A stretch of DNA of 64,000 nt from Halomonas sp. KG2. Its GTDB lineage: Bacteria; Pseudomonadota; Gammaproteobacteria; Pseudomonadales; Halomonadaceae. The notes below the pieces were generated by a model. The model did no database searches. It was not told the origin of the DNA and saw only the letters and a list, made by a program, of their open reading frames with translations. The stretch's first letter is position 1. Every line of letters begins with the position of its first letter. The DNA lies in contig CP098528.1 of the NCBI GenBank assembly GCA_030440445.1, positions 434,001-498,000 on the forward strand, written 5' to 3'. Shown piece by piece: positions 10,650 through 30,478 of the stretch. A program made the position numbers and the translations under genes.

Positions 10650-10682
10650 GCCGGAAGTACCTGCCTGTCCGCAAGGGGATAC

Positions 10683-10738
10683 GAGATAGATAGTTCGAGG
10701 TAGATAGTTCGGTATAGATAGTTCAAGATTGATAGTAA
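10683..10738 (+). repeat. Four tandem 14-bp repeats downstream of fdhA
   Basis: Four consecutive 14-bp units begin at 10683, 10697, 10711 and 10725. The unit is close to GAGATAGATAGTTC, and the last copy is degenerate. They lie between the fdhA stop and the terminator. Such a short array may vary in copy number between strains. Confidence 0.75.
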
Positions 10739-10745
10739 GACCCTA

Positions 10746-10772
10746 GACGGCACCCCGCGGGGTGCCGTCTTC
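10746..10772 (+). terminator. Terminator after fdhA
   Basis: A perfect 24-bp palindrome (10746-10769) starts GACGGCACCCC and forms a very GC-rich hairpin followed by a short T-rich stretch. It separates fdhA from the formate dehydrogenase operon. Confidence 0.75.
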
Positions 10773-10815
10773 GTTCATTCGGCATCACGCCGATCAAAAT
10801 AATAATGAGTGACCC

Positions 10816-12534: not shown

Positions 12535-12545
12535 GGGAGATCAGC

Positions 12546-15395
12546 ATGAGTGAACAGAGCTTAAATCAAAGCTTTACCCTGACCCTGGACGGCGTTGACG
12601 TCAGCGCTTACCCCGGTGAAACCCTCTGGCAAGTCGCCAAGCGTGCCGGCGAGACCATTCCGCACCTCTGTTTCAAGGATGCCAGCGGCTATCGCGCCGA
12701 CGGCAACTGCCGTGCTTGTATGGTGGAAATCGAGGGCGAACGCACCTTGGCCGCAAGCTGTCTGCGCGAAGCGGCGCCCGGTATGGTGGTTAATAGTGCC
12801 AGCTCTGAACGCGCACACACGGCCCGCAAGATGGTCATGGAAATGCTGCTGGTCGACCAGCCTGAGCGCGAAGAGAGCCCCGACAGCTCAAGCCATTTCT
12901 GGGCCATGGCTGACCAGTTGGCCATTGATGCCACGGCAGTGCGCCGCAAGCTGCCCAAGCGCGCAGAGCGTGAGACGACTACCGTGCATCATGTGGCGCC
13001 TAGGACGGGTAGCCTGGAGCAAGACAGCAGCCACTCTGCCATGCGCGTTAATCTTGATGCCTGCATTGAGTGCAATCTGTGTGTGCGCGCCTGTCGTGAA
13101 GTGCAGGTCAACGATGTTATCGGTCTGGCGCATCGAGGTGCGGCAGCCAAGATCGTATTTGATTTCGACGACCCCATGGGAGACAGCACCTGTGTTGCTT
13201 GTGGCGAGTGTGTTCAAGCCTGCCCCACGGGTGCTTTAATGCCTGCCACCCTAGTGGATGAGCAAGGGTACGGAGACTCTGCTGTGGCTGACCGTAAGGT
13301 TGACTCAGTGTGTCCCTACTGCGGGGTTGGCTGTCAGCTTACCTACCATATCAAGGACGATAAGATCCTTTATGTGGAGGGCCGCGATGGTCCTTCAAAC
13401 GAGAACAGGCTATGTGTTAAAGGTCGCTTCGGCTATGACTATCCACGCCATCCATCTCGGCTTGTTACCCCGCTGATTCGTCGCGAGGGTGTCGCAAAGG
13501 GAATCGATCCAGATTTCGACCCCGCCAAGCCCCTAACACACTTCCGCGAGGCGAGCTGGGACGAAGCCCTTGAGGTGGCCGCCAGCGGGCTTGTGAACCT
13601 TAAAGTGAATCATGGCCCTGATGCCTTGGCGGGGTTCGGCAGTGCCAAGTGCTCCAACGAAGAGGCGTGGCTGTTCCAGAAATTGGTGCGTACCGGCTTT
13701 GGTTCCAATCATGTGGATCACTGTACCCGCTTGTGTCACGCCAGTTCGGTGGCAGCGCTCATGGAGTGTATCGGTTCAGGCTCAGTAACCGCCTCCTTTA
13801 TGCAGGCCAGCCAAGCTGACGTGGTGATTCTTACCGGCTGTAATCCGGCTGTGAATCACCCGGTGGCGGCCACCTTCTTCAAGCAGGCCGCCAAGCGTGG
13901 CACCAAGATCGTGATCCTCGACCCCCGTGGTCAGGCGTTGGATGCCTACGCCCATCGCAGCGTTCGCTTTTCACTGGGTGCTGATGTGGCGCTGTTTAAT
14001 GCCATGCTCAATGTGATCATCAGCGAAGAACTTTATGACACGGCCTATATCGCCGAGCATACCGAAGGCTTTGAGGCGCTCAAAACGCATACGGTGGATA
14101 TGACCCCCGAAGCGATGAGCGGCCTGTGCGGTGTTGAACCAGAGACCATTCGCGAAGTGGCCAGGCTCTATGCCAACGCCGAGCGGGCAATGATTTTCTG
14201 GGGCATGGGCATTTCCCAGCACACCCATGGGACCGACAACGCCCGTTGTTTGATCTCGCTGGCGCTGGCTTGCGGCCAGACCGGTCGCCCTGGGACTGGC
14301 TTGCACCCTCTGCGGGGGCAGAACAACGTTCAAGGGGCATCTGATGCCGGCCTGATTCCCATGGTAATGCCGGACTACCAGCCGGTTAGCGATGCGCAGG
14401 TACGCAGTGCTTTCGAAGAGCTGTGGAATACCAAGCTGGATCCCACGCCGGGGCTCACCGTGGTTGAAATTATGGATGCTATCGCTGCGGGCACCATTCG
14501 CGGCATGTATATCCAGGGTGAGAACCCGGCGATGTCCGATCCAGATCTGGCCCATGCTCGAGCCGCGCTGGCCAAGCTGGAACACCTGGTGGTACAGGAT
14601 CTTTTTGTCACTGAGACCGCTCAATTCGCCGATGTTATCTTGCCGGCCTCCGCCTGGCCTGAGAAGGATGGCACCGTCACCAACACCAATCGGCAAGTGC
14701 AGATGGGGCGTGCGGCCTTGCCGCTACCGGGCCAGGCCAAGCCGGACTGGTGGATCATTCAGGAAATGGCTAAACGCTTCGGCCTCGACTGGAATTACCA
14801 GCATCCGCAGGACGTGTTCGCCGAGATGAAGCAAGGTATGGCCTCTCTCGACCATATTTCCTGGGAGCGTTTGGAGCGCGAGCAATCGGTGACCTACCCT
14901 TGCCCAGCGGAGGATGTACCGGGACAAGACGTAGTCTTCAGCGAGGCCTTCCCAACCGTCAGTGGTCGGGCGAAGTTCGCGCCTACGCGCCCGCTGCCAC
15001 CGGATGAGCCAGTCGATAACGACTATCCGACGGTGCTGACCACTGGCCGCCAGTTAGAACACTGGCATACCGGATCAATGACCCGCCGTGCCAAAGTGCT
15101 CGATGACCTGGAGCCGGAAGCCGTGGCGAGCTTGGCGCCCGCTGAGCTTATCCGGCTGGGATTGGCGCCAGGCGATGACCTGACGATCACCACCCGGCGA
15201 GGGGCCATCACCCTCAAGGTCAGGACGGATCCGGGCATGCCTGAGGGGATGGTTTTCGTGCCTTTCTGCTACGAGGAAGCGGCGGCGAATCTACTCACTA
15301 ACCCGGCGCTGGACCCGTATGGAAAGATTCCAGAGTTCAAGTACGCTGCTTGCCGGTTGAGCCGCCCGGAAACCCATATAAAGCGAGTTAGCTAG
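12546..15395 (+). CDS. fdsA: NAD-dependent formate dehydrogenase molybdenum subunit FdsA
   Basis: 949 residues. In order: a [2Fe-2S] domain (CRACMVEIEGERTLAASC), two [4Fe-4S] motifs (CIECNLCVRACR and CVACGECVQACP), the catalytic-domain [4Fe-4S] motif (CPYCGVGCQLTYH), and the bis-MGD fold. The putative molybdenum ligand is C397 in RLCHASSVAAL, followed by the conserved His, so this is a cysteine rather than selenocysteine enzyme. It oxidises formate to CO2 in the cytoplasm. It sits immediately downstream of the fused gamma-beta gene and completes oxidation of C1 units from betaine and from PurU. The N-terminal cluster set matches soluble Fds enzymes rather than membrane FdnG. Confidence 0.93.
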   Translation: MSEQSLNQSFTLTLDGVDVSAYPGETLWQVAKRAGETIPHLCFKDASGYRADGNCRACMVEIEGERTLAASCLREAAPGMVVNSASSERAHTARKMVMEMLLVDQPEREESPDSSSHFWAMADQLAIDATAVRRKLPKRAERETTTVHHVAPRTGSLEQDSSHSAMRVNLDACIECNLCVRACREVQVNDVIGLAHRGAAAKIVFDFDDPMGDSTCVACGECVQACPTGALMPATLVDEQGYGDSAVADRKVDSVCPYCGVGCQLTYHIKDDKILYVEGRDGPSNENRLCVKGRFGYDYPRHPSRLVTPLIRREGVAKGIDPDFDPAKPLTHFREASWDEALEVAASGLVNLKVNHGPDALAGFGSAKCSNEEAWLFQKLVRTGFGSNHVDHCTRLCHASSVAALMECIGSGSVTASFMQASQADVVILTGCNPAVNHPVAATFFKQAAKRGTKIVILDPRGQALDAYAHRSVRFSLGADVALFNAMLNVIISEELYDTAYIAEHTEGFEALKTHTVDMTPEAMSGLCGVEPETIREVARLYANAERAMIFWGMGISQHTHGTDNARCLISLALACGQTGRPGTGLHPLRGQNNVQGASDAGLIPMVMPDYQPVSDAQVRSAFEELWNTKLDPTPGLTVVEIMDAIAAGTIRGMYIQGENPAMSDPDLAHARAALAKLEHLVVQDLFVTETAQFADVILPASAWPEKDGTVTNTNRQVQMGRAALPLPGQAKPDWWIIQEMAKRFGLDWNYQHPQDVFAEMKQGMASLDHISWERLEREQSVTYPCPAEDVPGQDVVFSEAFPTVSGRAKFAPTRPLPPDEPVDNDYPTVLTTGRQLEHWHTGSMTRRAKVLDDLEPEAVASLAPAELIRLGLAPGDDLTITTRRGAITLKVRTDPGMPEGMVFVPFCYEEAAANLLTNPALDPYGKIPEFKYAACRLSRPETHIKRVS

Positions 15396-15649: not shown

Positions 15650-16243
15650 TCAGAAGGGTGGAGATAAACTGTCTGGAGTATCAATGTCATAGCATACGCC
15701 AGGATCATTTAGTGAGATTTTTACAATATGATCACTATACCGCTGGAGAATAGCGGATGCGCCGCTGGGATTGCTTAAATCAGCGATATGTTCCCAAAAT
15801 TTTCTACCAAAAATAACCGGGTGGCCTGGGATCTGTAGGTGTGTTGGTTGAACGATATTTTCTGCGCTAGAAATGTCTGCTAATAACTTACACGTTTTTT
15901 GAGTCACCCAAGGGAGATCGGCAAGCCAAATCGCTGCGGATCGGTAATGATTAAATTTTTCGTCTGAGCATAGATATTTGAAAGCATCGCTAATGCTGTA
16001 TCCAAGTCCTAAATGACTGCGCTGGCTAACCAGCGTTGGGGTGATTGGAGAAAGACCGAGTGATTGAGCCTTATCATCTTCTTTAAGCACAACGGTAATA
16101 TTTGGAAAGTGTTGCTGAATGGTTAACAACGTGGAGGTAAGTAGTGTCTTTCCATTGCTTAATTTAGCAATTCTTTTATCGCTACCAAAACGACGAGACT
16201 GGCCAGCCGCCATGACAATCACGATGATATCACTACAGCTCAT
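15650..16243 (-). CDS. mocA: MocA-like molybdenum cofactor cytidylyltransferase
   Basis: About 197 residues of the MobA/MocA nucleotidyltransferase family. The N-terminal signature is VMAAGQSRRFGSDKR, with the metal-binding Asp in WLADLPWVTQ and the GHPVIFGRKFW segment near the C-terminus. Such enzymes cytidylate molybdopterin to make the MCD cofactor used by xanthine-oxidase-family hydroxylases. It overlaps xdhC and follows the molybdenum hydroxylase subunit, so it probably loads the nicotinate hydroxylase. The start is the ATG inside the xdhC stop region; an in-frame GTG at 16258 is possible. The gene is clearly richer in A and T than its neighbours, which suggests a different origin. Confidence 0.8.
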   Translation of the reverse strand: MSCSDIIVIVMAAGQSRRFGSDKRIAKLSNGKTLLTSTLLTIQQHFPNITVVLKEDDKAQSLGLSPITPTLVSQRSHLGLGYSISDAFKYLCSDEKFNHYRSAAIWLADLPWVTQKTCKLLADISSAENIVQPTHLQIPGHPVIFGRKFWEHIADLSNPSGASAILQRYSDHIVKISLNDPGVCYDIDTPDSLSPPF

Positions 16244-17201
16244 GACGTGTTTTTCCACGATAAATGCGATGAATGTCGGCCATGACGGCTAACGCAATTT
16301 GAGCCGGTGTTTTGCTGCCTAAATTAAGCCCAATGGGCATGTTTATTCGTGCTACTTGGGCACTTGTTAGGCCGCCAGAACGCAGCAGCCGCTCTGCGCG
16401 CTGTTGTGAGGTCTGATGAGAGCCCATGACCCCAATGTAAAATGCATTGGTACGGACGGCTTCGATCATGGCCAAATCATCAATACGTGGGTCATGGGTC
16501 AAGGCAACAATGGCGGTATTGGCATGGCAGCCACCTGATGAAATAAACACCGAAGGTAGAACTGCCTGTACTTCCACTCCCGCGACCGCAAAATTTTGCC
16601 TAGCCTCGTCTCTGGGGTCACAGACAATCACTTCAAACCCCAGCGATTGGGCAAACAGCGCACAGGGTGAAGAGATTGAAGAGATCCCCGCGATAATCAG
16701 CCGTAGCGCTGGGCCTATGCGAATATTGGCGCTAGCGGTGTCAAAAGTAACGGTGGGCTCGGTGTTTTTCGAGGGGTTAAAGCGCTTGCCGCTGCCATCC
16801 AATTTGATACAGCGGGTTAGCGGTTGGCGACCCAGTAGCGTGGCATGCACCACTTCTAAGTGAGTGAGGTTTTCGGTGTTGGGCGCTAGCCGTTCAACCA
16901 GTATTTCTAGGCTACCACCGCAGGGTAAACGAATATTCGCTGAACCAGCGTCACCGCCATAGCGCACCCGCTGAACCGGTTCGTTGAACTCTCCCTTTTG
17001 CAGCCTGGCGATAAAGTCTTCTTCGACACAGCCGCCCGACAGTGACCCCAGATAGTCGCCTGTCGAACATGCTACCAGCATGGCACCCGGCTCTCGGGGG
17101 GCTGAGCCAAAGGTTTTTAGCACCGTACACAACCAAATAGTCAGCCCCTGGTTGGCCCATTTCAATGCGCGTTCGATAACCTGTAGATCAAGGTGTTGCA
17201 T
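16233..17201 (-). CDS. xdhC: XdhC-family molybdenum cofactor insertion chaperone
   Basis: 322 residues. The N-terminal XdhC/CoxI domain contains GSAPREPGAMLV and GSLSGGCVEEDFI. The C-terminal Rossmann domain contains VALTHDPRIDDLAMIEA and YIGVMGSHQTSQQRAERL. The family binds the molybdenum cofactor, supports its sulfuration and inserts it into xanthine-oxidase-type enzymes. The ATG shares a base with the TAA stop of the hydroxylase gene (TAATG), a tight coupling that argues for a dedicated chaperone. P. putida nic clusters as I recall them do not include xdhC. Confidence 0.88.
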   Translation of the reverse strand: MQHLDLQVIERALKWANQGLTIWLCTVLKTFGSAPREPGAMLVACSTGDYLGSLSGGCVEEDFIARLQKGEFNEPVQRVRYGGDAGSANIRLPCGGSLEILVERLAPNTENLTHLEVVHATLLGRQPLTRCIKLDGSGKRFNPSKNTEPTVTFDTASANIRIGPALRLIIAGISSISSPCALFAQSLGFEVIVCDPRDEARQNFAVAGVEVQAVLPSVFISSGGCHANTAIVALTHDPRIDDLAMIEAVRTNAFYIGVMGSHQTSQQRAERLLRSGGLTSAQVARINMPIGLNLGSKTPAQIALAVMADIHRIYRGKTRHEL

Positions 17202-19471
17202 TAACTAGCCGCCTCCATGGGGAGTTGAAGAGAGGCTTTCAGCGCGTCGCGAATGGTGTCAGGGGTAAAAGGGGGATGGGTAAAGCGTACCCCCGTGGCA
17301 TCAAAAAGCGCGTTGGCAATTGCAGGAGCGCCGGGCAGTGAGGCGGACTCTCCAACGCCGAGTGGCGGCAATTCAGGGCGATCAAGCAGCATGACGTTGA
17401 TGGGAGGGAGCTCCGAGAAACGCAGAATAGGGTAGCCGCCCCACTCTTTGCTGGTCGGTAAACCATCCTCAAAGGACACCCGCTCCTTTAACGTGCGGCT
17501 GAGCATTTGGATCACATTGCCATGCACCTGATGGCGAACGCCAGCGGGGTTCACCATTAAGCCCGCATCCTGACCTACAAATAAATTCTCGACGACAATC
17601 CGTCCACTCTTCACATTGACTTTAAGCTCAATTACCCAGGCGGCGAGCGCGGCGCCAAAGCCGGGAAATTTGCTATGCACGTACTGGGCGTAAGCGAAGC
17701 CTCGGCCGTAGCGCCACTCACCCTCGCTTCTTGGGTTGGTGTTAGCGGTGCAGGGTTGCCAGTTCGCACGTTCGGCTAACGCTTCGACAAGCTCGCTGGC
17801 GCGGTTATCGGTTAAGTAGCGCAACCGATAGGTGACCGGATCTTCATCCGCCAAATAGGCAAGCTCATCAATATAGCTTTCATGGGCGAAGGTGCTGGGC
17901 AGCGCCGAGACACCACGCAGCCAGGAGGCGCGAACCAGAGTCGGGACGTCGTCGCAGACTATTTGGCGATGAGGGTAGCGGTAGGGTGGCACCGACGTTC
18001 GATCTCCCATCTCAAAGGGGATATCAATTGGTGAGGCAGTACCGGTCAGCAGTAGTGCCAGGGTGGGGGCACTGTTAGAGGGGTAGCGCGTATTAAAGCG
18101 ATAGCCTGCTGGGCTGCCATCGGCATTTAAACCACCTTGGATCGCCATATACTGAGCAGCTCCTTTAGGCTCCCAGGTGTGTTCCTGTTCACGGGTGAGT
18201 TGCACACGGACAGGGCGGCCAACTGCCTGAGACAGCAGCACAGCATCCGCGCCAACGTCGTCAGCACAATTGCGGCCATAGCAGCCCGAGGTTTCCATGC
18301 GGGTAATGATGATAACGCCTTCATCCAAACCGGTAAGGCGGGCGAGGTCGGCGCGCAGGCTGTGAGGGTTTTGGGTGCCCGACCATACGTGAAGACCACT
18401 TTCATTGGCATCGGCGACGGAGCACGAAGGGCCAATGGAGCCATGCAGCTGGAAAGGCCACACATAGTGACGATTGAACGAGTGCTGTGCGGCGGCCAGC
18501 GCGTTGTCGAGATCACCCTCATCGAGAAGTATGCGCTGCTTGCTGGGTAAGTCGAGCAGTGCTTGCTCTATATTGTCCAACTGAGGCAAGCCTTCGATGG
18601 GGCGCCACTGGATCTTTAGCTGTTTGGCTGCGGCAGCAGCCTGCTCTTCACGCTCGGCCACCACGCCAACAAAGTCACCGACCACCACGACGCTTACCAC
18701 GCCTGGCAAATGCGCCACAGAGCGTTCATCAACTGCGATTAAACTGTTGCCAATAAAGTCGCCGTTATCATGGCCTACATAAGGCGGGCGAATCACTCGC
18801 CCATGCAGCATGTCGGGCAGGCGTAGGTCGTGGATAAAGGTCAATTGCCCAGTGGCCTTGGCGGGTATATCCACGCGAGAGGTCGATTGGCCGACCAGGG
18901 TATAGTGGCTGACCGGCTTAAGCGGCACCTCATCGGCAAGCTTTAATGCATGACGGGTGCCCCGCAGCAACTCTCCAAAGCTCACGGATGAGTGGTTATT
19001 ATCACTGGGCGTAATAGCGCCGTTTTGGCAGCTAAGTAGTGAGCGCTCAGTGTCAAAGTGCTTTGCTGCCAGTGTTAATAGGTACTCCCGCGCTTGAGCC
19101 GCCGCGCGGCGTAAAGGCTCGGCAGTGATTTGAATCGACGCACTGGCAATGGTGGGGCCTTGGTTGGGAGCTTCAACGGAGTTTCCCAGCACCATGGTAA
19201 CGCTGTCGAACGCGACGCTAAGTTCTTCTGCAACAATTTGAGCGAGCGCCGTGCGTATACCTGTGCCCAAGTCTACGTGGCCGTTGAAAGCCACGATGTG
19301 ACTATCGTTCAGTACGGCAATAAATATTTCTGGCTCATGGGGGGTGAAGTTTGAGTGTGTACCTGGCTGTCCGGGCGCGGGCTTAGGAGGCGTAACCGGA
19401 TCGCGATAGATCACCAAAACATCAGATCCATACAGCAGTGACTCTCTTGTATAGTCTGATTTATCGACCAT
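17201..19471 (-). CDS. nicB: Molybdenum hydroxylase large subunit, NicB-like but without cytochrome c domains
   Basis: 756 residues of the IorB/NicB branch of the xanthine oxidase family. The N-terminal cofactor-binding segment is present (GHVDLGTGIRT, residues 64-74), then the hammerhead region near 205-275, the cofactor region with SGTQNPHSLR and ETSGCYGRNCADD, and the active-site glutamate E708 in PPLGVGESASLPG. It ends directly after the molybdenum domain. P. putida NicB (about 1,190 residues) continues into three haem domains that are missing here. Together with NicA it should hydroxylate nicotinate to 6-hydroxynicotinate. It is the first gene of an mpt-xdhC-mocA operon and has GGGAGG before the ATG. 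See the companion at 24595. Confidence 0.82.
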   Translation of the reverse strand: MVDKSDYTRESLLYGSDVLVIYRDPVTPPKPAPGQPGTHSNFTPHEPEIFIAVLNDSHIVAFNGHVDLGTGIRTALAQIVAEELSVAFDSVTMVLGNSVEAPNQGPTIASASIQITAEPLRRAAAQAREYLLTLAAKHFDTERSLLSCQNGAITPSDNNHSSVSFGELLRGTRHALKLADEVPLKPVSHYTLVGQSTSRVDIPAKATGQLTFIHDLRLPDMLHGRVIRPPYVGHDNGDFIGNSLIAVDERSVAHLPGVVSVVVVGDFVGVVAEREEQAAAAAKQLKIQWRPIEGLPQLDNIEQALLDLPSKQRILLDEGDLDNALAAAQHSFNRHYVWPFQLHGSIGPSCSVADANESGLHVWSGTQNPHSLRADLARLTGLDEGVIIITRMETSGCYGRNCADDVGADAVLLSQAVGRPVRVQLTREQEHTWEPKGAAQYMAIQGGLNADGSPAGYRFNTRYPSNSAPTLALLLTGTASPIDIPFEMGDRTSVPPYRYPHRQIVCDDVPTLVRASWLRGVSALPSTFAHESYIDELAYLADEDPVTYRLRYLTDNRASELVEALAERANWQPCTANTNPRSEGEWRYGRGFAYAQYVHSKFPGFGAALAAWVIELKVNVKSGRIVVENLFVGQDAGLMVNPAGVRHQVHGNVIQMLSRTLKERVSFEDGLPTSKEWGGYPILRFSELPPINVMLLDRPELPPLGVGESASLPGAPAIANALFDATGVRFTHPPFTPDTIRDALKASLQLPMEAAS

Positions 19472-19680
19472 GCTTGCCTCCCGCGCTAGCGTTTTAGGTA
19501 ATCAGTGCAGATGAATTTGAGGTGATCAATGAGCGAAAATTACGGTAAAATTATAGTGTGTACGCCATAAAATCATGGTGAATTGATCCAGCGCAAGCAG
19601 TATTTAACACGTTGATGCATCATTTTGTTAACCAGTGCCATACTCGATACACGTCGTCGCTAATAGATTAAGGAGATGGA
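19472..19680. promoter_or_regulatory. Divergent promoter region of the molybdenum subunit operon and nicR
   Basis: A 209-bp divergent spacer. It contains GTGTGTACGC (19556-19565). That resembles GTGTACGCACC at 23905 and the complement of AACGTATACACC at 23722, which lie in the nicC/nicA spacer. This shared element is a candidate binding site for NicR. The spacer ends with an AGGAG ribosome site before nicR. Confidence 0.5.
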
Positions 19681-20163
19681 ATGACAACGGATAGTGCGCT
19701 CAAACACTCGTCTTCCGGCGAGCACCCCACGCCTTCAGAGCAGGGGTATGATTTTTCTGAGCAAGTAGGCCATCTACTGCGCAAAGCCTACCAGCGGCAT
19801 ACGGCTATTTTTCAGCGCTACAGCAGTGATAAGCAGCTTACGGCCATTCAGTTTGTCACGCTGTGCACGGTGATGGAGCGAGGTCCCAGCTCGTTAACCG
19901 ATATCGTCAACGCCACGGCGATTGATCCAGCCACCATCCGTGGCGTCATTAAACGCCTTAAAGCACGTGAGTGGATCTCGCTCACCACCGACCCCAATGA
20001 TCAACGCAAAGTCATGGTCGTGATCACCGAGCCTGGGGAGACATTAGTCGAGGGCATGGTGCCCAGCGCCAAGCAAATTAGCGATCAGACCATGAAAAAT
20101 CTCAACCCGGCAGAGCGGGTTGCCTTAATGCATCTGCTGGAAAAAATGAACGCGGACGGATGA
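19681..20163 (+). CDS. nicR: MarR-family repressor NicR of nicotinate degradation
   Basis: 160 residues with the MarR winged-helix core: QFVTLCTVMERGPSSLTDIVNAT, the recognition helix ATIRGVIKRLKAREWISLT, and the wing DPNDQRKVMVVITEPG. In P. putida NicR represses the lower nicotinate genes and is released by pathway intermediates. It is transcribed away from the molybdenum subunit and converges on nicF. An AAGGAGATGG ribosome site precedes the ATG. The MarR family is certain; the target assignment is from context. Confidence 0.87.
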   Translation: MTTDSALKHSSSGEHPTPSEQGYDFSEQVGHLLRKAYQRHTAIFQRYSSDKQLTAIQFVTLCTVMERGPSSLTDIVNATAIDPATIRGVIKRLKAREWISLTTDPNDQRKVMVVITEPGETLVEGMVPSAKQISDQTMKNLNPAERVALMHLLEKMNADG

Positions 20164-20173
20164 CACAACAGAG

Positions 20174-20202
20174 GTGCCCGCTTCACCTGTGTTTTCGGGC
20201 AC
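20174..20202. terminator. Shared terminator between nicR and nicF
   Basis: GTGCCCG (20174-20180) pairs with CGGGCAC (20196-20202) in the 41-bp convergent gap. It could act in both directions. Confidence 0.6.
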
Positions 20203-20204
20203 TC

Positions 20205-20849
20205 CTAACGCTTCATTAAGTAACCCAGTGTTTCATCCAGTCTAATCACATCGCCATATTTGCTATCGATATCAAACAGGTTGGCTTCATGGGGCGCGGG
20301 GTGGCGGTCGCCCACGCAATCACGTACCACCATCACCCGAAAGCCGTGCTGTAGGCCATCCACGGCGGTGGCGCGAATGCAGCCGCTGGTGGAGCAGCCG
20401 GTAATGATCAGCGTGTCGACGCCCATGGCGACCAGCGTGGAAGCAAGCGAAGTACCAAAGAAGGCGCTGGCATACTGCTTGGTCATCACCAGTTCATCGT
20501 CGTTAGGCGTCACTTCAGGACAGAAGTCAGCGTAGGGATTACCTGCCACCATGGCTCGCATTACCGGCGCTTTCTTAACCCAAATGCCACCATCGATTTG
20601 ATCCGGGGCGTGATAAAGGATGTTGGTGTGGATGACTGGCGTGCCAGTGCGCCGCGCGGTATTGAGTAGCGGTGGCATATTGGCCACCGCATCCACCACG
20701 CCCTGGGCAAATAGCGGCGAGCCTGGCGTGGTGTAGCCTTGCATAAAATCAACCACCAGCAGTGCGGGCCTTTTGCCAAAGCCAATGCGTCCATCCCACA
20801 CGCCCTTGTAGTTGTCCGAGGCCGTATTATCAGTATTGTGCTGCGACAT
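20205..20849 (-). CDS. nicF: Maleamate amidohydrolase NicF
   Basis: 214 residues of the isochorismatase-like cysteine hydrolase family. The catalytic triad is readable: Asp in ALLVVDFMQGY, Lys in VMTKQYASAFFGT, Cys in ITGCSTSGCIRATAVDG. It hydrolyses maleamate to maleate and ammonia, the penultimate step before fumarate. ATG 20849 has AAGGAGACG upstream; the longer in-frame TTG start is unlikely. It is the last gene of the minus-strand operon nicC-nicD-nicE-nicF. Confidence 0.9.
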   Translation of the reverse strand: MSQHNTDNTASDNYKGVWDGRIGFGKRPALLVVDFMQGYTTPGSPLFAQGVVDAVANMPPLLNTARRTGTPVIHTNILYHAPDQIDGGIWVKKAPVMRAMVAGNPYADFCPEVTPNDDELVMTKQYASAFFGTSLASTLVAMGVDTLIITGCSTSGCIRATAVDGLQHGFRVMVVRDCVGDRHPAPHEANLFDIDSKYGDVIRLDETLGYLMKR

Positions 20850-20899
20850 GGTCGTCTCCTTAATCAGCACTCTAGATCGTTAATAAGCACCTGATCTCG

Positions 20900-21661
20900 T
20901 TAGTAAGCCCCTGACAAGAGAGCACCCGCGCCCGGTACGATGGGTTCCAGGTCGAGTGCCTTGAGCATGGCGTAGGTGGTCGCGATAGCTGCGGTCACCA
21001 CCGGCTTACCGGTCAGGGCTTCAACCTTGGCGACGGCCGGTAGCGAGGGCATTTGCACACAGGCCGACAAGACGATCGCGTCCACGTTACTTAAATCGAG
21101 GCTGGCGACGATTTCGGGGAGATTGGCGGGATCGTGGCGAGCGACATCCAGGTTGTTGGGGATCTCAAGCGCCCGGTAGTCGAGCACCTCAATGCCTTCC
21201 TGGCGGATGTAGTCGACCACCATTTCGGTTAGCGGCTTCATGTAAGGCGCCACTACCACCACTCGTTTGGCTTTCATCACACCCAGGGCATCGACCAGTG
21301 CACCGGCGCTGGTGACCACCGGTGTGTCGCAGCCATTCTCTTCGGTGCGGCTGCGCAAACGCTTTTGCGACGCTCGGTGGTAGCCGGGCCCCATCGCCAT
21401 AATGGCTACCAGGCAGGCATACCCCATCACATCTACCGCTGCATCAGAGAGTTCCAAGGCACAGCGGTCAGACTCCCCATCCATCGCGGCCAGCTCGTCC
21501 TTGCTGACGGTTTTCATGCGCATGCGGCTGGAGTGAAAGGTAAAGCGTTCCGGACGAATCAACTGCCGTGCAGTGAGCATGGCAGGTATCTCGGTCTCCA
21601 TAGTGATATTGGAACTGGGGACGATCTGGCCGATACGGTATGTTTTGGTGCTCTGGGTCAT
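20900..21661 (-). CDS. nicE: Maleate isomerase NicE
   Basis: 253 residues of the Asp/Glu racemase superfamily. The two catalytic cysteines are C83 (VMGYACLVAIMAMGPGYH) and C201 (IVLSACVQMPSLPAV), at almost the same positions as in characterised NicE enzymes. It converts maleate to fumarate, delivering nicotinate carbon to the TCA cycle. It lies between nicD and nicF with short gaps. Confidence 0.91.
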   Translation of the reverse strand: MTQSTKTYRIGQIVPSSNITMETEIPAMLTARQLIRPERFTFHSSRMRMKTVSKDELAAMDGESDRCALELSDAAVDVMGYACLVAIMAMGPGYHRASQKRLRSRTEENGCDTPVVTSAGALVDALGVMKAKRVVVVAPYMKPLTEMVVDYIRQEGIEVLDYRALEIPNNLDVARHDPANLPEIVASLDLSNVDAIVLSACVQMPSLPAVAKVEALTGKPVVTAAIATTYAMLKALDLEPIVPGAGALLSGAY

Positions 21662-21676
21662 GATTATTGGCCTTGG

Positions 21677-24113
<2,437 letters not shown>

Positions 24114-24602
24114 ATGACGCTAAAGCTAACTATCAATGGGCACGAACACGAGTTGGCCGTGCCGCCACAGACACCATTGCTCAATGTGTTGCGTAACGAC
24201 TTGGCGCTCAATGGACCTAAGTATGGCTGTGGTTTGGGTGAGTGTGGGGCATGCAGTGTATTGATTGATGGCATGGCCGCACGCACCTGCGTGCTGCCCG
24301 TGTCTGCTGCTGTTGGTCATGAGGTAACCACCCTTGATGGTCTTTCCGGTGGCGATGAGCTTGATCCTGTTCAGCAAGCCTTTATCGATGCTCAGGCAGC
24401 CCAGTGTGGCTACTGTTTGAACGGCATGATCATCACTATTCGTGCGTTGCTAAACCATAATGCTCAACCCTCTGCGCAGCAGATTCGCACCGCTTTAGAG
24501 CATAACCTCTGCCGATGTGGCACCCATGTTGAAATTCTCCAGGCAGCGGAGCGTGCCGTGGGCATTAACGCGGCCGCGTTGCAGGAGGCTTCTCATGAGT
24601 GA
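24114..24602 (+). CDS. nicA: Nicotinate dehydrogenase iron-sulfur subunit NicA
   Basis: 162 residues with two [2Fe-2S] sites. The plant-type N-terminal site is GCGLGECGACSVLIDG followed by RTCVLP; the helical C-terminal site is QCGYCLNGMI and NLCRCGTH. It carries electrons from the molybdenum subunit to the cytochrome subunit. Its last codons overlap the downstream gene by 8 bp, which puts nicA in the same transcript as the cytochrome fusion protein and far from the intact molybdenum subunit. Confidence 0.92.
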   Translation: MTLKLTINGHEHELAVPPQTPLLNVLRNDLALNGPKYGCGLGECGACSVLIDGMAARTCVLPVSAAVGHEVTTLDGLSGGDELDPVQQAFIDAQAAQCGYCLNGMIITIRALLNHNAQPSAQQIRTALEHNLCRCGTHVEILQAAERAVGINAAALQEASHE

Positions 24603-27600
24603 AGGGTCGATGCTCCATGGCCAGCAAAAACAGGCCGACATCCCTGCGCTGCTAGCGAAGGCACGTTTTGGTGTCGTGGTGCGTCCACCTTACTATCGGT
24701 GGAATGGCGAGCGTTTTGAGAGTGACTGCTTAGTTGGCGTCGTTCGCAGTAGCATTGCCTCACTCTCTGGCTCTATTGAAGTCGTGGTGGAAGGAAATTT
24801 TGTGGCGGTGGTTGCCGATAGTTTGGCCTTGGCGACCGATGCCGCTAAACAGTTGAAGGTTGAGTGGCAGGCCGTTCACCAGGCGTCCGAAAAAGTTCCT
24901 GAAGGCGATCAATGGCCCTCTGAGTTGCCTCTTGTAAAGCCTAGCCAGTCGGACATGCATTCGAACCATACGTATGGCTGGCCGAGTCGCATGCGCTGGG
25001 GCAATCACCCCAGTTGGGTAATTGCCGATTGTCGCGACCAACAATTGAGCGTGTGGGGGCAAACCGTCACTCCAGCGGCACTTAAACAGGACCTAAGCCA
25101 GTTAACCGCGCTGGATATTAGCCAGATTGAACTTTACAGCGCCGATGGTAAGCACGCATCAAATCAGGCCTCAGGGCTGGGTCGCCATTGCGGTGACGAT
25201 GCCGCCGTGGATGCGGCGTTGATGTCGCGGACGGTGGGTGGCCCGGTAGCCGTTTGGCTCGATGCCCGCTACGCCAAGGATGCTCAGGCATTAGGCCAAG
25301 CGCAGCGAATTAGCCTAAACGCAGACATTGCCAGTAGTGGTGAGATAGCCCGTTATCACTATCAGCAGGCCAATCTCACGGGGGAGGTGGCTGCCATAGG
25401 GTTGTTGTTAAGTGGCAAGGCCATGATAGCAACGCCTAGCGCTGAGGCCCGCGTTGGCGAGCAAGACACCACGCCGTTCTCTCCCTATGTATTTCGCGAT
25501 CAATACCTTGCTGCACGCTCCCAGCCAGCTTCGCTCTCCACCAATTCCACCTTGATGGGGATACAGCAGACGTTTGCGCGGGAATCCTTTTTAGATGAGG
25601 TTGCCCGCGAGAGCGACCAAGACCCTATCGTGCTGCGACTTCGCCATCTTGACGATGCACGTGGCATAGAGCTGATTGAGTCCGTGGCTAAACAGGCCGA
25701 TTGGCAAAGGGCAGCCAATCCATCAGCGGACGCTTTACCCCAGGATCTACTGCGCGGGCGGGGCTTTGCCTACTCTCAGCTGCCCGATCGGAATCAGCGC
25801 ATGGAGTCGGGAGTACGCTCTGCCTGGATTGCCGATGTGGAGGTCAATCTTGTTACCGGCGATGTTCAGCTTACCCGTTTGGTGGTGGGGCAGGACGCTG
25901 GCCCTGATGTGGACACTGATCGCCTGCAGCAAACGCTACAGGCCCGGGTATTGGGCGAAGCGCGCCCCCTCTTGGGGCAAGCGCCCAGTTTCGACGAGTG
26001 GGGTGACGGCAGTCGTACGCTAAGTGAACGTGAATATTCCGCCGTATTGCCAGCCAGCGCTTCTGCGCCATGCTCTACCGATAAAGACATTAATAAAACC
26101 GCCGGTGAAGACGTATTAAGCGGTGCGGAGCTATCGCCAGGTGTTGCGGTAATAGCCAATGCGCTTTTTGATGCCACCGGGCTGCGTTTTCGCCAGCCAC
26201 CGTTTACCGCCAAGCGCGTGCGCCAGGCACTCGAAGCTTCGTCCATCGAGGAGGCAAGGCGCCCAACTACATTGAAACCGCCGCGGTCAGTGAAACGGCG
26301 CTGGTTAGCCGCTGCAGCGTTTACCACCATTGCAGGCACTGCGGCCGTGGCGTGGCCGTGGAAAGGGGCTATTGCGCCTGTCTCACGGCCAGCCGCCAAC
26401 CTTTATTCCGCCGAGACCATTGAGCGCGGGCGACTCGTGGCGGCTGCAGGCGACTGCGCGGCATGTCATACCACAGAAGGTGGCGTGACCAATGCCGGTG
26501 GGCGTGGATTTGAGACACCTTTCGGGACGCTCTACAGCACGAACATTACCCCGGATGAAGCGACGGGGATTGGTCAGTGGTCCTACGCAGCCTTTGAACG
26601 CGCCATGCGCCACGGCATTAGCCGTGATGGCAGCCACCTTTATCCCGCGTTCCCCTATACGGCATTTGCCAAGACCAGTGATGCCGATTTACAGGCGCTT
26701 TACGCCTACTTAATGGCTCAGCCTCCTGTCGCGACTGAAAAAAACGTCAATGCGCTCACTTTCCCCTTCAGCGTGCGTAGCTTAATGGCAGGCTGGAATA
26801 CGCTTTATCACGATGCAACTCCTTTCCAGCCTGACCCCATGCAAAGCGAACTGTATAACCGGGGAGCCTACCTTGCCGAAGGGTTGGGCCACTGCAGCGC
26901 CTGTCATAGCCCCCGCAATGCCATGGGCGCTGAGAAAAATGGCGAGGCGTATTTTGCCGGTGCCTTTGTAGATGGTTGGGAAGCACCGCCGCTTAATACG
27001 CTGTCGCGTTCGCCCATTCCGTGGAGTGAAACATCGCTTTACGACTATCTGCGCCACGGTGAGTCAGAGCTTCACGGCGTTGCCTCTGGCCCTATGGCCC
27101 CGGTGGTAGCGGGGCTGGCGGAGCTACCTGAATACGATGTGCGGGCGATTGCTCACTATGTGGCCGCCCAGATGCAGGCGCCAGCAGGTAATAGCGATGC
27201 GACTGTGGTGGACGCTACGCAGCGCGTGACCAGTGCAGCCGTTAGCTCAACAGGGCTTGAGGCAGGGGAGCGGCTTTTCGAGGGCGCCTGTGCGGCGTGC
27301 CATGTCGATTCTGGCGTTCCTACCTTTTCGAGGGCGAGCACTAATCTGGCGCTGAATACCAATTTGCACAGCGACCATCCCGATAACGTTATTCAGTCAA
27401 TTTTGGGCGGTGTTCATGCCGAACACGTTCCCGGTATCGGTAGCATGCCAGGCTTTGCCGACAGCTTTAGTAATACCCAGGTCGCTGATTTGACGACCTA
27501 TCTCCGAGCGCGCTTTGCCCCAGAGAAAGCGCCTTGGCAACAAGTAAAACAACGTATCACAGAGTTACGCCAGCCTCACTACAACAACACTCACTCTACT

Positions 27601-27606
27601 CCCTGA
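24595..27606 (+). CDS. NicB-like protein with degenerate molybdenum domain fused to three cytochrome c domains
   Basis: 1,003 residues. Residues 1-545 align with the second part of the molybdenum subunit at 17201: GVVVRPPYYRW matches GRVIRPPYVGH, and IANALFDATGLRF matches IANALFDATGVRF. However, the first 200 residues, including the GHVDLGTGIRT segment, are absent. The PLGVGESAS active-site motif has become VLSGAELSP. One hydrophobic segment follows (about 568-590), then three haem motifs: CAACH at 621, CSACH at 767, CAACH at 899. The haem part should accept electrons from NicA and pass them to the respiratory chain. The molybdenum part is probably structural. ATG 24595 has GGAGG upstream and overlaps nicA; reading continues intact for 3 kb with no frameshift. 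Confidence 0.85.
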   Translation: MSEGSMLHGQQKQADIPALLAKARFGVVVRPPYYRWNGERFESDCLVGVVRSSIASLSGSIEVVVEGNFVAVVADSLALATDAAKQLKVEWQAVHQASEKVPEGDQWPSELPLVKPSQSDMHSNHTYGWPSRMRWGNHPSWVIADCRDQQLSVWGQTVTPAALKQDLSQLTALDISQIELYSADGKHASNQASGLGRHCGDDAAVDAALMSRTVGGPVAVWLDARYAKDAQALGQAQRISLNADIASSGEIARYHYQQANLTGEVAAIGLLLSGKAMIATPSAEARVGEQDTTPFSPYVFRDQYLAARSQPASLSTNSTLMGIQQTFARESFLDEVARESDQDPIVLRLRHLDDARGIELIESVAKQADWQRAANPSADALPQDLLRGRGFAYSQLPDRNQRMESGVRSAWIADVEVNLVTGDVQLTRLVVGQDAGPDVDTDRLQQTLQARVLGEARPLLGQAPSFDEWGDGSRTLSEREYSAVLPASASAPCSTDKDINKTAGEDVLSGAELSPGVAVIANALFDATGLRFRQPPFTAKRVRQALEASSIEEARRPTTLKPPRSVKRRWLAAAAFTTIAGTAAVAWPWKGAIAPVSRPAANLYSAETIERGRLVAAAGDCAACHTTEGGVTNAGGRGFETPFGTLYSTNITPDEATGIGQWSYAAFERAMRHGISRDGSHLYPAFPYTAFAKTSDADLQALYAYLMAQPPVATEKNVNALTFPFSVRSLMAGWNTLYHDATPFQPDPMQSELYNRGAYLAEGLGHCSACHSPRNAMGAEKNGEAYFAGAFVDGWEAPPLNTLSRSPIPWSETSLYDYLRHGESELHGVASGPMAPVVAGLAELPEYDVRAIAHYVAAQMQAPAGNSDATVVDATQRVTSAAVSSTGLEAGERLFEGACAACHVDSGVPTFSRASTNLALNTNLHSDHPDNVIQSILGGVHAEHVPGIGSMPGFADSFSNTQVADLTTYLRARFAPEKAPWQQVKQRITELRQPHYNNTHSTP

Positions 27607-27627: not shown

Positions 27628-27816
27628 ATGAAACGCAGTAAATGGATATGGCTAGTATGGGCAGTTGTCCTGCTGAGCTACCTAGTGCCTTACACCCTCT
27701 TGAGCGGGGTCGCGTTCTGGTACGGCAGCTTCCTGTTTTGGATGTTGGCAGGGCTGATCATCATTGCGCTGAATGTGTTTATCACTAAAGATTTTGAGGA
27801 GCACAGCAATGACTGA
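27628..27816 (+). CDS. Small membrane protein paired with the sodium-solute symporter
   Basis: 62 residues with two hydrophobic helices (about 7-25 and 30-53) and a charged, acidic C-terminus. It resembles the short DUF3311/DUF997-type proteins encoded directly before sodium-solute symporters, such as YhdT before PanF. An acceptable ribosome site (ACGAGGTGG) precedes the ATG. Its stop overlaps the symporter start, implying an obligate partner or assembly factor. Confidence 0.7.
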   Translation: MKRSKWIWLVWAVVLLSYLVPYTLLSGVAFWYGSFLFWMLAGLIIIALNVFITKDFEEHSND

Positions 27817-29317
27817 GTCACTCATCTGGTGGTCCATTGCCATCTATTTATTGATCGCTATTGGCATTGCGATTATGTCTCGCCAGGGCCCTTCCGAAAG
27901 TATGTCGGGATACTTCCTGGGTAACCGACAAATGAACGGCTTTGTCTCGGCGCTGAGTTACAGTGCCACTACCTACAGTGCTTTTATGATGGTGGGCTTG
28001 GCAGGCCTTACCTATGCCGGCGGCGTGGGAGCGCTCGGTTTTGAAATCATCTATTTCGCCGGTGTGTCGCTTGTGGCTATCTTCGGGCCAAAATTCTGGG
28101 CGGTGGGCAAGAAGTTTGGCTTTGTAACCCCCAGCGAGATGTTGGGCCACCGCTACAACAGCAAACATGTGGCCATGGCTGTCTCGATTGCCAGTTGTAT
28201 CTTCCTGATTCCCTACTCGGCCGTTCAGCTCGCGGGTGTCGGTTACCTGTTGCAGGGGATTACGGATGGCGCGATTACCTTTACTACCGGGGTGGTGCTG
28301 GCCACTGTCATCGCTATCTTCTTCTCCTATATTGCGGGCATTCGTTCGGTGATGTGGACCGACTCGCTCCAGGCCATCATGATGATTGTTGCCTCAACCC
28401 TAGTGGCCTTCTTGGTGATCCAAGGCTTGGGTGGTTTCGGCGCACTATTCGATACGCTGGCAACGGAACATCCACAGTCGCTGACGGTGCCTGGCCCTGG
28501 CTTGTTCAGCTTTGTCACTTTCCTGGGGCTTACTATTCCCTGGTTCTTCTTTAGTATTTCCAACCCGCAGGTCAGTCAACGCCTGTTTATGCCTTCCTCG
28601 CTGCGCTCCATGCGCCACATGCTGATTGGCTTCCTGGTGTTTGGTTTTATCTACACCATGGTCTCTGTGCTTTGGGGCTTCTCTGCCTTAGCCGCTTTCC
28701 CAAGTCTTGCAAGTGCAGATTTAGCCACGCCTACGCTGCTGGCCTCGGAGTTTGTACCGCCCGTATTAGGGGTGATTGTGATGATCGGCATCATGGCCGC
28801 CGCCGTCTCCACCATTGATTCGATCATGCTGACGCTGGCGTCCATGGTCTCCCGCGACGTCTATGCAAACGTTAAACCGAACGTCAGTGAAAAGCGCCAA
28901 CTGCTGGTGGGCAAGTTTGTGGTGCCGGTGATCGCACTGATGGCGCTGGCCTTTGCCGAGCTGCAGCTTGACCTGATTGCAGTGCTGTCGGTGGCCGCTT
29001 CCTCGGGTCTGGTAGCGATGGTGCCTGCGCTTATAGGTGCCTTCTATTGGAAACGCGGTACTGGCGTCGGTGCGCTGGTAAGCGTAGTGGGCACCAGCGC
29101 CTTTGTGCTGTTGATGTATGCCACTGGCAATTCGCTGCTGGGCCTACCCGCTGGCGTATGGGGAATTGTGGTCGCTAGTGTGCTGTTTGTTGGCGTTAGC
29201 CTTATGACTAAGCCTCATCAAGCCTCTTCGGACGCTTTCTTTACCGCCATCGCGGAAGAGCTGGGTAAAAAGCGCCGTACTACCACCGATCAAGCGACGA
29301 AAGAGGCGGCTGCCTAA
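27809..29317 (+). CDS. Sodium:solute symporter family transporter, likely for nicotinate or a pathway compound
   Basis: About 502 residues and roughly thirteen helices. SSS hallmarks include YSATTYSAFMMVGLAGLTYAGG near helix 1-2, MLGHRYNSK, and the sodium-site segment AAAVSTIDSIMLTLASMVSRDVY. It is related to the PanF/SSS carboxylate carriers. It follows the cytochrome fusion gene and precedes nicX, inside the nicotinate island, where P. putida instead has an MFS carrier (NicT). Nicotinate or 6-hydroxynicotinate is therefore the best guess for its substrate. ATG 27809 has GAGGAG upstream. Confidence 0.83.
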   Translation: MTESLIWWSIAIYLLIAIGIAIMSRQGPSESMSGYFLGNRQMNGFVSALSYSATTYSAFMMVGLAGLTYAGGVGALGFEIIYFAGVSLVAIFGPKFWAVGKKFGFVTPSEMLGHRYNSKHVAMAVSIASCIFLIPYSAVQLAGVGYLLQGITDGAITFTTGVVLATVIAIFFSYIAGIRSVMWTDSLQAIMMIVASTLVAFLVIQGLGGFGALFDTLATEHPQSLTVPGPGLFSFVTFLGLTIPWFFFSISNPQVSQRLFMPSSLRSMRHMLIGFLVFGFIYTMVSVLWGFSALAAFPSLASADLATPTLLASEFVPPVLGVIVMIGIMAAAVSTIDSIMLTLASMVSRDVYANVKPNVSEKRQLLVGKFVVPVIALMALAFAELQLDLIAVLSVAASSGLVAMVPALIGAFYWKRGTGVGALVSVVGTSAFVLLMYATGNSLLGLPAGVWGIVVASVLFVGVSLMTKPHQASSDAFFTAIAEELGKKRRTTTDQATKEAAA

Positions 29318-29387: not shown

Positions 29388-29446
29388 CAGTTAACACTCC
29401 CCGGTATGCTATAGCTGTGCTTTCGCCTGGGGAATTAGGAGTATGT

Positions 29447-30478
29447 ATGGATCACGCAAGCTTTGCCGAAATTTGCCTCCATCAGCTAAAAATGTCCGGC
29501 GTACATGAAGGCGAAAAACTCGTCGTACTGACCCAGGGTAGCGAACGCCTTGATTATGCGGATGCCTTTATGGCGGCGGGACAGCGTTTAGGCGCCAATA
29601 TGTACCACATGCGGTTACCCGCGCCGTTGCCTACCGGTGGCTGGGCCGTGGGAACAACGGGGCTTGCTAGCATGCCCGATGCGGTGGAAGCGCTTAAAAA
29701 CTGCGACATGTTGATCGATTGTATTTTCCTGCTGTTCTCTCCCGAGCAAATGGCGATCCAAGCCGCGGGTACACGTATATTGACGGCGGTTGAACCGCCA
29801 GAATTACTGGCCAGAATGTTGCCCACCAAGGAACTAAGGGAAAAGGTTGAACTGGCCGCCGCGCTGCTGGAAAAAGCCAAAGTGATGCGCATTACCTCGC
29901 GCCATGGCACTGATGTCACCTACCAACTGAATACTTATGAGACGGTTGCTGAATATGCCTGTACCGACGAACCGGGGCGTTGGGATCACTGGCCCTCTGG
30001 CTTTGTGTTTACCGGAGGGGATGACGATGGCGTTGATGGCACCATTGTGGTGGCACCGGGCGATATCCTGCTACCTCAGAACATGTATGTCAGAGAGCCG
30101 ATTACCTACACGATTGAGAAGGGCTGGATTACCGACATACGTGGTGGGCTCGATGCGGAGCTAGTGAAATCCTATATGGATAGCTTTAACGACCCACGCG
30201 GCATGGGCATGAGCCATGTGGGCTGGGGCATGAACCCGAACGCCAAATGGCACCGCATGGTGCCGGGGGAGTTCCCGGGTGGCATGGGGATGGAGCCGCG
30301 CAGCTTTTATGGCAACGTGATGTTCTCCACCGGCCCGAACAGCGAGCTAGGTGGCACAAATGATACCGCCTGCCACTTGGATATCCCGATGCGTAATTGC
30401 TCATTGTTTCTTGATGATGAACCCATCGTGATTGATGGTGATATTGTCGTCAAAGAGCTGCAGATGGACAGAAACTGA
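29447..30478 (+). CDS. nicX: 2,5-Dihydroxypyridine 5,6-dioxygenase NicX
   Basis: 343 residues, matching the family length. The mononuclear iron ligands are readable as H257 (MSHVGWGMNP), H310 and D312 (ACHLDIPMRN), offset by eight from the P. putida enzyme. It cleaves 2,5-dihydroxypyridine to N-formylmaleamate, the substrate of NicD. ATG 29447 has TTAGGAG upstream; a longer in-frame start exists. It lies 129 bp after the symporter, so it may have its own promoter. Confidence 0.92.
   Translation: MDHASFAEICLHQLKMSGVHEGEKLVVLTQGSERLDYADAFMAAGQRLGANMYHMRLPAPLPTGGWAVGTTGLASMPDAVEALKNCDMLIDCIFLLFSPEQMAIQAAGTRILTAVEPPELLARMLPTKELREKVELAAALLEKAKVMRITSRHGTDVTYQLNTYETVAEYACTDEPGRWDHWPSGFVFTGGDDDGVDGTIVVAPGDILLPQNMYVREPITYTIEKGWITDIRGGLDAELVKSYMDSFNDPRGMGMSHVGWGMNPNAKWHRMVPGEFPGGMGMEPRSFYGNVMFSTGPNSELGGTNDTACHLDIPMRNCSLFLDDEPIVIDGDIVVKELQMDRN

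What the first reader, a model, noticed from the sequence alone, without database searches (positions are those of the whole stretch)
17201..27606. Nicotinate hydroxylase split into an intact molybdenum subunit and a cytochrome subunit carrying a gutted molybdenum domain
P. putida NicB is one protein: molybdenum domain plus three c-type haem domains. Here the gene at 17201-19471 has the complete molybdenum domain (GHVDLGTGIRT, E708 in GVGES) and no haems. The gene at 24595-27606 has three CxxCH haem motifs and a NicB-like domain that starts about 200 residues late, lacks GHVDLGTGIRT, and has VLSGAELSP where GVGESAS should be. Both align through IANALFDATG. The reading frame is open for 3 kb, so the second is a maintained protein, not a pseudogene. 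I infer duplication followed by division of labour: one copy does catalysis, the other became a docking scaffold that links NicA to the haem chain.
Basis: partly seen in the sequence, partly recalled or inferred. Interest (0 to 1): 0.85.

Follow-up and report, generated by a model that had tools for sequence, protein, structure and literature searches.

The report
Dead molybdenum domain in nicotinate hydroxylase
In this bacterium the enzyme that starts breakdown of vitamin B3 is built from a working molybdenum protein plus a haem protein that still carries an old, worn-out copy of the molybdenum domain, probably kept as a structural docking piece.

Summary
P0001 (17201-19471) is an intact molybdenum subunit; P0002 (24595-27606) is a three-haem protein whose first ~550 residues are a NicB-type molybdenum domain lacking its first ~200 residues and its cofactor motifs, apart from a partly kept glycine loop. 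This is old and regular, not a local oddity. All 33 fetched loci with such a haem protein also hold the intact copy, and 46 of 48 loci with an unfused intact copy from a capped scan have the haem protein in the genome. Sampled intact copies form one clade (100/99) and sampled dead copies another (100/100), outside the fused NicB of Pseudomonas, Paraburkholderia and Bradyrhizobium: one old duplication with division of labour. The dead domain keeps its length and predicted fold and is under purifying selection (dN/dS about 0.2, against 0.07-0.08 for the live copy). The three-gene make-up is already in print as NicA/NicB1/NicB2; I found no description of the dead domain. Most likely NicB2 is a pseudoenzyme subunit that anchors NicA-NicB1 to its own membrane-bound triheme cytochrome. 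Which partner it grips, and how electrons reach the haems, is inference.

The parts
17201..19471 (-). NicB1 (P0001, 756 aa): intact molybdenum (MPT) subunit, no haems
16233..17201 (-). XdhC-like Moco maturation factor, abutting NicB1 (1-base overlap)
   Evidence: NCBIfam XdhC-type hits below the curated cut-off; sequence at the junction
15650..16258 (-). MocA-like molybdenum cofactor cytidylyltransferase, overlapping XdhC
   Evidence: NCBIfam TIGR03310 88.9 bits, below its cut-off of 186.45
24114..24602 (+). NicA: [2Fe-2S] subunit
   Evidence: Pfam Fer2_2 and Fer2
24595..27606 (+). NicB2 (P0002, 1003 aa): dead molybdenum domain, hydrophobic segment, triheme cytochrome c; overlaps NicA by 8 bases
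24667..26241 (+). degenerate NicB-type molybdenum domain (residues 25-549)
26305..26361 (+). hydrophobic segment (residues 571-589) after a basic stretch, possible membrane anchor
   Evidence: Kyte-Doolittle 1.25, weak, and below three windows inside the folded domain; a segment at the same distance before the first haem in the 21 other proteins that gave a value
26455..26469 (+). CxxCH haem site 1 (residue 621)
26893..26907 (+). CxxCH haem site 2 (residue 767)
27289..27303 (+). CxxCH haem site 3 (residue 899)
24583..24588 (+). AGGAGG ribosome-binding-site-like hexamer, 6 nt before ATG 24595
   Evidence: sequence
19681..20163 (+). MarR-type regulator
   Evidence: name recalled from nic clusters; homologue in 32 of 37 related loci
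20205..20870 (-). NicF-like amidohydrolase
   Evidence: gene order and homologues in other nic loci; NCBIfam hits below cut-off
20900..21661 (-). NicE-like isomerase
   Evidence: gene order and homologues; NCBIfam hits below cut-off
21677..22495 (-). NicD-like alpha/beta hydrolase
   Evidence: gene order and homologues; NCBIfam hits below cut-off
22492..23652 (-). NicC-like FAD monooxygenase
   Evidence: gene order and homologues; NCBIfam hits below cut-off
27773..29317 (+). SSS-type transporter in the cluster
   Evidence: family name recalled; homologue in 33 of 37 related loci
29417..30478 (+). NicX-like dioxygenase
   Evidence: no NCBIfam hit; 42-48% to a gene between nicD/E and nicF in most beta-proteobacterial nic loci, the place called nicX in Delftia

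Best explanation
The window encodes a three-subunit nicotinate hydroxylase, NicA-NicB1-NicB2, in a complete-looking nic cluster. An ancestral fused NicB (molybdenum domain plus three c-haems) was duplicated once, long ago. One copy lost the haems and became NicB1, the only subunit with the residues to bind the molybdenum cofactor. The other kept the hydrophobic segment and haems but lost the first half of the cofactor-binding domain and the cofactor residues; it became NicB2, a pseudoenzyme fused to a cytochrome. Inferred working: NicB1 oxidises nicotinate in the cytoplasm and passes electrons to the two iron-sulphur clusters of NicA. The folded but dead domain of NicB2, next to the membrane segment, holds NicA-NicB1 at the membrane, and electrons end up in NicB2's periplasmic haems. 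Shown by sequence: intact versus dead domains, pairing, shared origin, purifying selection, retained fold (predicted). Inferred: docking role, topology, electron path.
Against: No complex was modelled, so docking is not shown. The nearest solved relative (8gy3) has a cytochrome subunit without any such domain, and G240 shows molybdenum and cytochrome parts in two frames with no dead domain, so the domain is not a general need. The kept residues look like general fold-core positions and point to no particular interface. 11 of 45 gamma NicB2 rows have a glutamate in the column of the catalytic one, though without the flanking glycine motif, and loose GxGES or TIAS strings occur somewhere in 2 and 1 of 45 gamma rows; I did not trace their places. 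The cytochrome tree does not put beta and gamma NicB2 together, though it does not reject it (AU p 0.31). The P0002 hydrophobic segment is weak (1.25). A NicB1-type gene in one metagenome bin (L115) has no NicB2 there, and L113's genome shows only a fragment. NicB2 is broken by a frame change in one Cobetia assembly (L136) and in G046. A 369-genome sample of the class added no NicB2 beyond the window's genus.
Confidence: 0.7

Rival explanations
1. The dead domain is a decaying relic with no function, carried along by the useful cytochrome part.
For: It evolves about three times faster than NicB1, differs strongly between beta and gamma lineages, some stretches are predicted with very low confidence, and one Cobetia assembly has it broken (L136).
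Against: dN/dS about 0.2, not 1; 433-600 residues in 79 of 79 NicB2 rows, so no deletion of the domain in that set; most of it predicted folded with high confidence.
Confidence: 0.08
2. The dead domain pairs with NicB1 in a molybdenum-domain heterodimer (a pseudoenzyme-enzyme dimer), replacing a homodimer of the fused ancestor, and does not contact NicA.
For: Both copies derive from one fused protein; many xanthine-oxidase-family enzymes are dimers through this subunit (recalled). NicB1 and dead-domain distances correlate.
Against: 8gy3_C and 8gy3_A, the nearest solved relatives, are listed with one chain each in one entry, which speaks against a dimer there. No interface evidence here.
Confidence: 0.3
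3. The dead domain gained a new ligand or substrate site, for example a quinone or another electron carrier.
For: 23 columns are conserved in NicB2 but not strictly so in fused/NicB1; the electron route to the periplasm is unexplained.
Against: No other-cofactor domain was reported for residues 1-560 by Pfam or NCBIfam; many of the 23 residues are also common in the live proteins.
Confidence: 0.1
4. NicB1 and NicB2 jointly form one molybdenum site, as the split NdhL/NdhM of Eubacterium barkeri does.
For: Two polypeptides with molybdenum-type domains and one FeS subunit; E. barkeri has two molybdenum-binding subunits (3hrd).
Against: NicB1 alone has the motifs and a complete predicted fold; NicB2 lacks the first half of the cofactor domain and the motifs of the second.
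Confidence: 0.03

Closest known systems
NicAB of Pseudomonas putida (a fused NicB, P0183 here, 1187 aa)
   Same: NicA, molybdenum domain, three c-haems, hydrophobic segment before the haems; NicB1 is 60% identical to it over 98% of NicB1
   Different: One polypeptide with a live domain; here live domain and haems sit in two proteins and the haem protein keeps a dead copy
Tripartite NicA/NicB1/NicB2 of Delftia, Bordetella and Burkholderia gladioli (named in passages of PMC4572682 and PMC10269826)
   Same: Same gene make-up; Delftia and Bordetella loci examined here carry the same kind of dead domain
   Different: No difference in kind; beta proteins have lost the GxGR loop that gamma ones keep, and gene order differs. 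B. gladioli itself was not examined
Membrane-bound aldehyde dehydrogenase of Gluconobacter oxydans (8gy3)
   Same: Its large subunit and triheme cytochrome are the nearest solved relatives; NicB1 aligns to the large subunit from end to end
   Different: Its cytochrome subunit (444 residues) carries no molybdenum-type domain
Nicotinate dehydrogenase of Comamonas testosteroni JA1 type (21/82/46 kDa per the review PMC10331938)
   Same: Three subunits in separate genes
   Different: A 46 kDa third subunit is too small for a dead domain plus three haems; it was not examined here, and the review calls it a flavoprotein

Membership tests
NicAB-type nicotinate dehydrogenase | gene lies in a nic cluster with nicC, D, E, F and X homologues | tested here: met
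   (names by homology and order)
NicAB-type nicotinate dehydrogenase | small subunit with two [2Fe-2S] domains | tested here: met
   P0003 Fer2 and Fer2_2
NicAB-type nicotinate dehydrogenase | molybdenum domain and three c-haems in one polypeptide (classical NicB) | tested here: not met
   live domain in P0001, haems in P0002
NicAB-type nicotinate dehydrogenase | hydroxylates nicotinate at C6 with electrons to the respiratory chain | not testable with these tools
   needs an assay
xanthine oxidase family molybdenum subunit: NicB1 | cofactor motifs and complete fold | tested here: met
xanthine oxidase family molybdenum subunit: NicB2 | cofactor motifs (GHVDLG, WxRGVSA, RHQxHGN, GxGES and others) | tested here: not met
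   motif strings in 0 of 79 NicB2 rows, except loose GxGES in 2 and TIAS in 1 of 45 gamma rows at untraced places; P0002 has no MoCoBD hit, though some NicB2 relatives carry a precomputed PF02738 or PF20256 hit
xanthine oxidase family molybdenum subunit: NicB2 | fold of the part that remains | tested here: met
triheme cytochrome c subunits of membrane dehydrogenases | three CxxCH and overall fold | tested here: met
pseudoenzyme | catalytic residues lost, fold and selection retained | tested here: met
   absence of bound cofactor not measured

The most novel reading that the evidence does not exclude
NicB2 is a pseudoenzyme of the xanthine oxidase family: a molybdenum domain that lost its cofactor once, before the beta- and gamma-proteobacterial versions parted, and was kept as the membrane docking part that holds the live NicB1-NicA pair against its own triheme cytochrome.
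Probability: 0.6. Interest if true: 0.62.

Novelty: new variant of a known kind. Interest (0 to 1): 0.52.

Why it matters
Membrane-linked nicotinate hydroxylation has been studied since the 1950s, and a 2023 review still calls its structure work preliminary. A natural system in which catalysis and haem tether sit in separate genes, with the tether keeping a dead copy of the catalytic domain, makes the meeting point of the molybdenum/iron-sulphur part and the haems testable by simple deletions. It also bears on annotation: in public records NicB2 is mostly labelled 'c-type cytochrome' and NicB1 'xanthine dehydrogenase family' or 'aldehyde dehydrogenase', so pathway calls that expect one fused NicB can misread beta- and gamma-proteobacteria.

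Tried and rejected
Pseudogene: rejected for P0002 (one open frame of at least 900 aa in 32 of the 33 loci with NicB2; dN/dS about 0.2). The exception, G046, also has breaks in NicC, NicD, NicE, the transporter and XdhC and comes from an assembly listed as 86% complete with 6% contamination. It was dropped from dN/dS and the trees but stays in the motif table and the distance correlation.

Recent, genus-level duplication: rejected, because beta- and gamma-proteobacterial copies fall into the same two clades. A single origin from the cytochrome part alone is not resolved. Long branches in NicB2 make its exact sister uncertain.

Finding the original papers: PMC5971473 and PMC2516282 are not held; Brickman and Armstrong 2018 was seen only as a citation. 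So the statement that the dead domain was not found in print rests on listings of searches and passages of seven papers in an open-licence library, and is weak.

A promoter and terminator scan of 23500-24200 found no site. PDB matching of the whole P0002 model mixes two domains, so its rmsd for the dead domain (about 6) is poor. A plasmid search gave one Halomonas record at 91% and otherwise matches under 60%, mostly rows named as one molybdopterin protein, that is probably fused NicB; not followed.

Counts that depend on choices: the 45 gamma rows hold near-identical pairs (for example P0051 and L058, P0065 and L055), the 102 NicB1 rows include P0198, which groups with fused Pseudomonas proteins, and only 13 fused rows were used of the 30 fused loci plus others at hand. 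Beta NicB2 frames run on upstream of the true start, which fills some N-terminal columns with chance letters, and many are cut by the end of the fetched stretch. Searches used strict E-value limits (1e-120 and 1e-150), so more distant forms are not counted. One search kept the best 80 of at least 589 relatives, so its shares say nothing about frequency.
Full report
What was checked. P0001 matches MoCoBD_2 in two pieces around MoCoBD_1; P0002 passes the Pfam cut-off only for two cytochrome c families. The start of P0002 at 24595 is backed by an AGGAGG six bases upstream and an 8-base overlap with nicA. The surroundings are a nic cluster: NicA, NicC, D, E, F and X homologues, a MarR regulator and a transporter; NicB1 abuts XdhC- and MocA-like genes. 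Gene names in the cluster rest on homology and order and in part on recall; NCBIfam hits were below curated cut-offs, and NicX had none.

What was lost and kept. In an alignment of 13 fused NicB, 102 NicB1-type and 79 NicB2 rows, counted again as strings: GHVDLG is in 13, 102 and 0 rows; EHxWEPK 13, 101, 0; MGDRT 13, 100, 0; WxRGVSA 12, 102, 0; IGPSC 13, 99, 0; GCYGRN 13, 102, 0; RHQxHGN 9, 90, 0; SGTQNP 13, 84, 0; TIAS 13, 101, 1; GxGES 13, 101, 2. I did not trace where the 1 and 2 stray strings lie. In 11 of 45 gamma NicB2 rows the column of the catalytic glutamate holds E, but without the flanking glycine motif. Assignment of these motifs to the pterin and molybdenum site is by recalled comparison with xanthine oxidase. 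NicB2 keeps RPP, an ADAALLS helix, FAxESxxDE, GRGFAY, SAWxAxVxVxxxTG and IANAxxDATGxRxRxPPF to a large degree. Gamma NicB2 also keep GxGR of the glycine loop; beta NicB2 have mostly lost it. Of 179 strictly conserved columns, 30 are kept, 69 lost and 80 partly kept; the lost ones are mostly polar or charged (40 of 69 against 5 of 30). This is the pattern of a dead active site in a maintained fold.

How regular it is. Among 117 genomes, 29 hold a protein matching both parts of P0002 and all 29 hold a P0001-type one on the same contig. In 37 fetched loci, 33 have the pair, 3 have a fused NicB and no separate NicB1, and 1 (G240) has molybdenum and cytochrome parts in two frames without a dead domain. 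In a 390-genome sample of the order, the same 14 genomes are found with either query: 10 pairs, 3 fused, and G240. A 369-genome sample of the class gave only the window's genus and one cytochrome-only match, so nicotinate hydroxylase of any kind close enough to be caught is rare there. A scan of named genomes kept the best 80 of at least 589 relatives: 30 fused (Paraburkholderia, Bradyrhizobium, Afipia and others), 2 that look like fused genes cut by a contig end (L138, L152), and 48 with an unfused NicB1-type gene. Of the 48, 39 show NicB2 in the same locus, one of them (L136, Cobetia) broken into two frames. A genome search found NicB2 for 7 of the other 9, some cut by contig ends, a fragment in one (L113) and nothing in one (L115, a metagenome bin). 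In this set the pair occurs in Bordetella, Achromobacter, Cupriavidus, Delftia, Acidovorax, Pusillimonas, Azoarcus and Herbaspirillum relatives, besides Halomonadaceae, Alcanivorax-type, Marinobacter and Endozoicomonas-type genomes.

Origin. The careful tree of the shared domain (68 rows) gives one clade of NicB1 (26 rows, 100/99) and one of NicB2 (24 rows, 100/100), with beta and gamma members split in both. Fused proteins lie outside. The cytochrome tree (45 rows) supports gamma NicB2 (100/100) and more weakly beta NicB2 (86/79); their union is not in the best tree but is not rejected (AU p 0.31). The simplest reading is one duplication of a fused NicB, then loss of haems in one copy and of the cofactor in the other.

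Working model. NicB1 and NicA show no leader peptide by eye. The best hydrophobic window in the 80 residues before the first haem lies 45-54 residues before it in NicB2, fused NicB, the G240 cytochrome and stand-alone cytochromes alike (22 of 23 proteins gave a value), and in 21 of the 22 net positive charge precedes it. In P0002 itself it is weak (1.25) and three windows inside the folded domain score higher. So the dead domain is probably cytoplasmic and the haems periplasmic. The dead domain would then be the part that holds NicA-NicB1 at the membrane. How electrons pass from the iron-sulphur clusters to periplasmic haems is not explained, for fused NicB either.

What is known. Passages of PMC4572682 list nicB1 and nicB2 in Delftia; passages of PMC10269826 call the enzyme tripartite (NicA, NicB1, NicB2) in Burkholderia gladioli and Bordetella. 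One section of the review PMC10331938 describes a 21/82/46 kDa enzyme and calls structure work preliminary. The searches of the open-licence library showed no description of a dead molybdenum domain; key papers are not held, so this absence is weak.

Verdict. The gene split is known; the regularly kept dead domain makes it a new variant of a known kind.

Noticed in passing
L062 (G240), 9859-13858: NicA - molybdenum part (745 aa frame) - triheme cytochrome (500 aa frame), no dead domain; the molybdenum part falls outside the NicB1 clade. Either an independent clean split or a fused gene with a frame break in the linker; not settled.
   Followed up: partly
L115, 7953-10301: NicB1-type gene in a Paracidovorax wautersii metagenome bin with no NicA or NicB2 found in the locus and no NicB2 in the bin.
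   Followed up: partly
L136, 1-1334: NicB2 dead domain lies in two overlapping frames in a Cobetia crustatorum JO1 contig, while another Cobetia protein (P0048) is intact; sequencing error or decay.
   Followed up: no
L048, L049, L051, L065, L068, L073, L078, L079, L080, L081, L082: About 3 kb of extra sequence between nicF and the MarR gene in some clusters, absent from the window's cluster.
   Followed up: no
L080 (G046): Many nic genes are broken by frame changes in one assembly (86% complete, 6% contamination), probably sequence quality.
   Followed up: no
window 24595-27606: Electron path puzzle: no leader seen on NicA/NicB1, haems presumably periplasmic; applies to fused NicB too.
   Followed up: partly
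window 10816-15395: Two formate-dehydrogenase-like genes (name by recall) next to the nic cluster; formate is released by the NicD step (recalled), so the neighbourhood may be functional.
   Followed up: no
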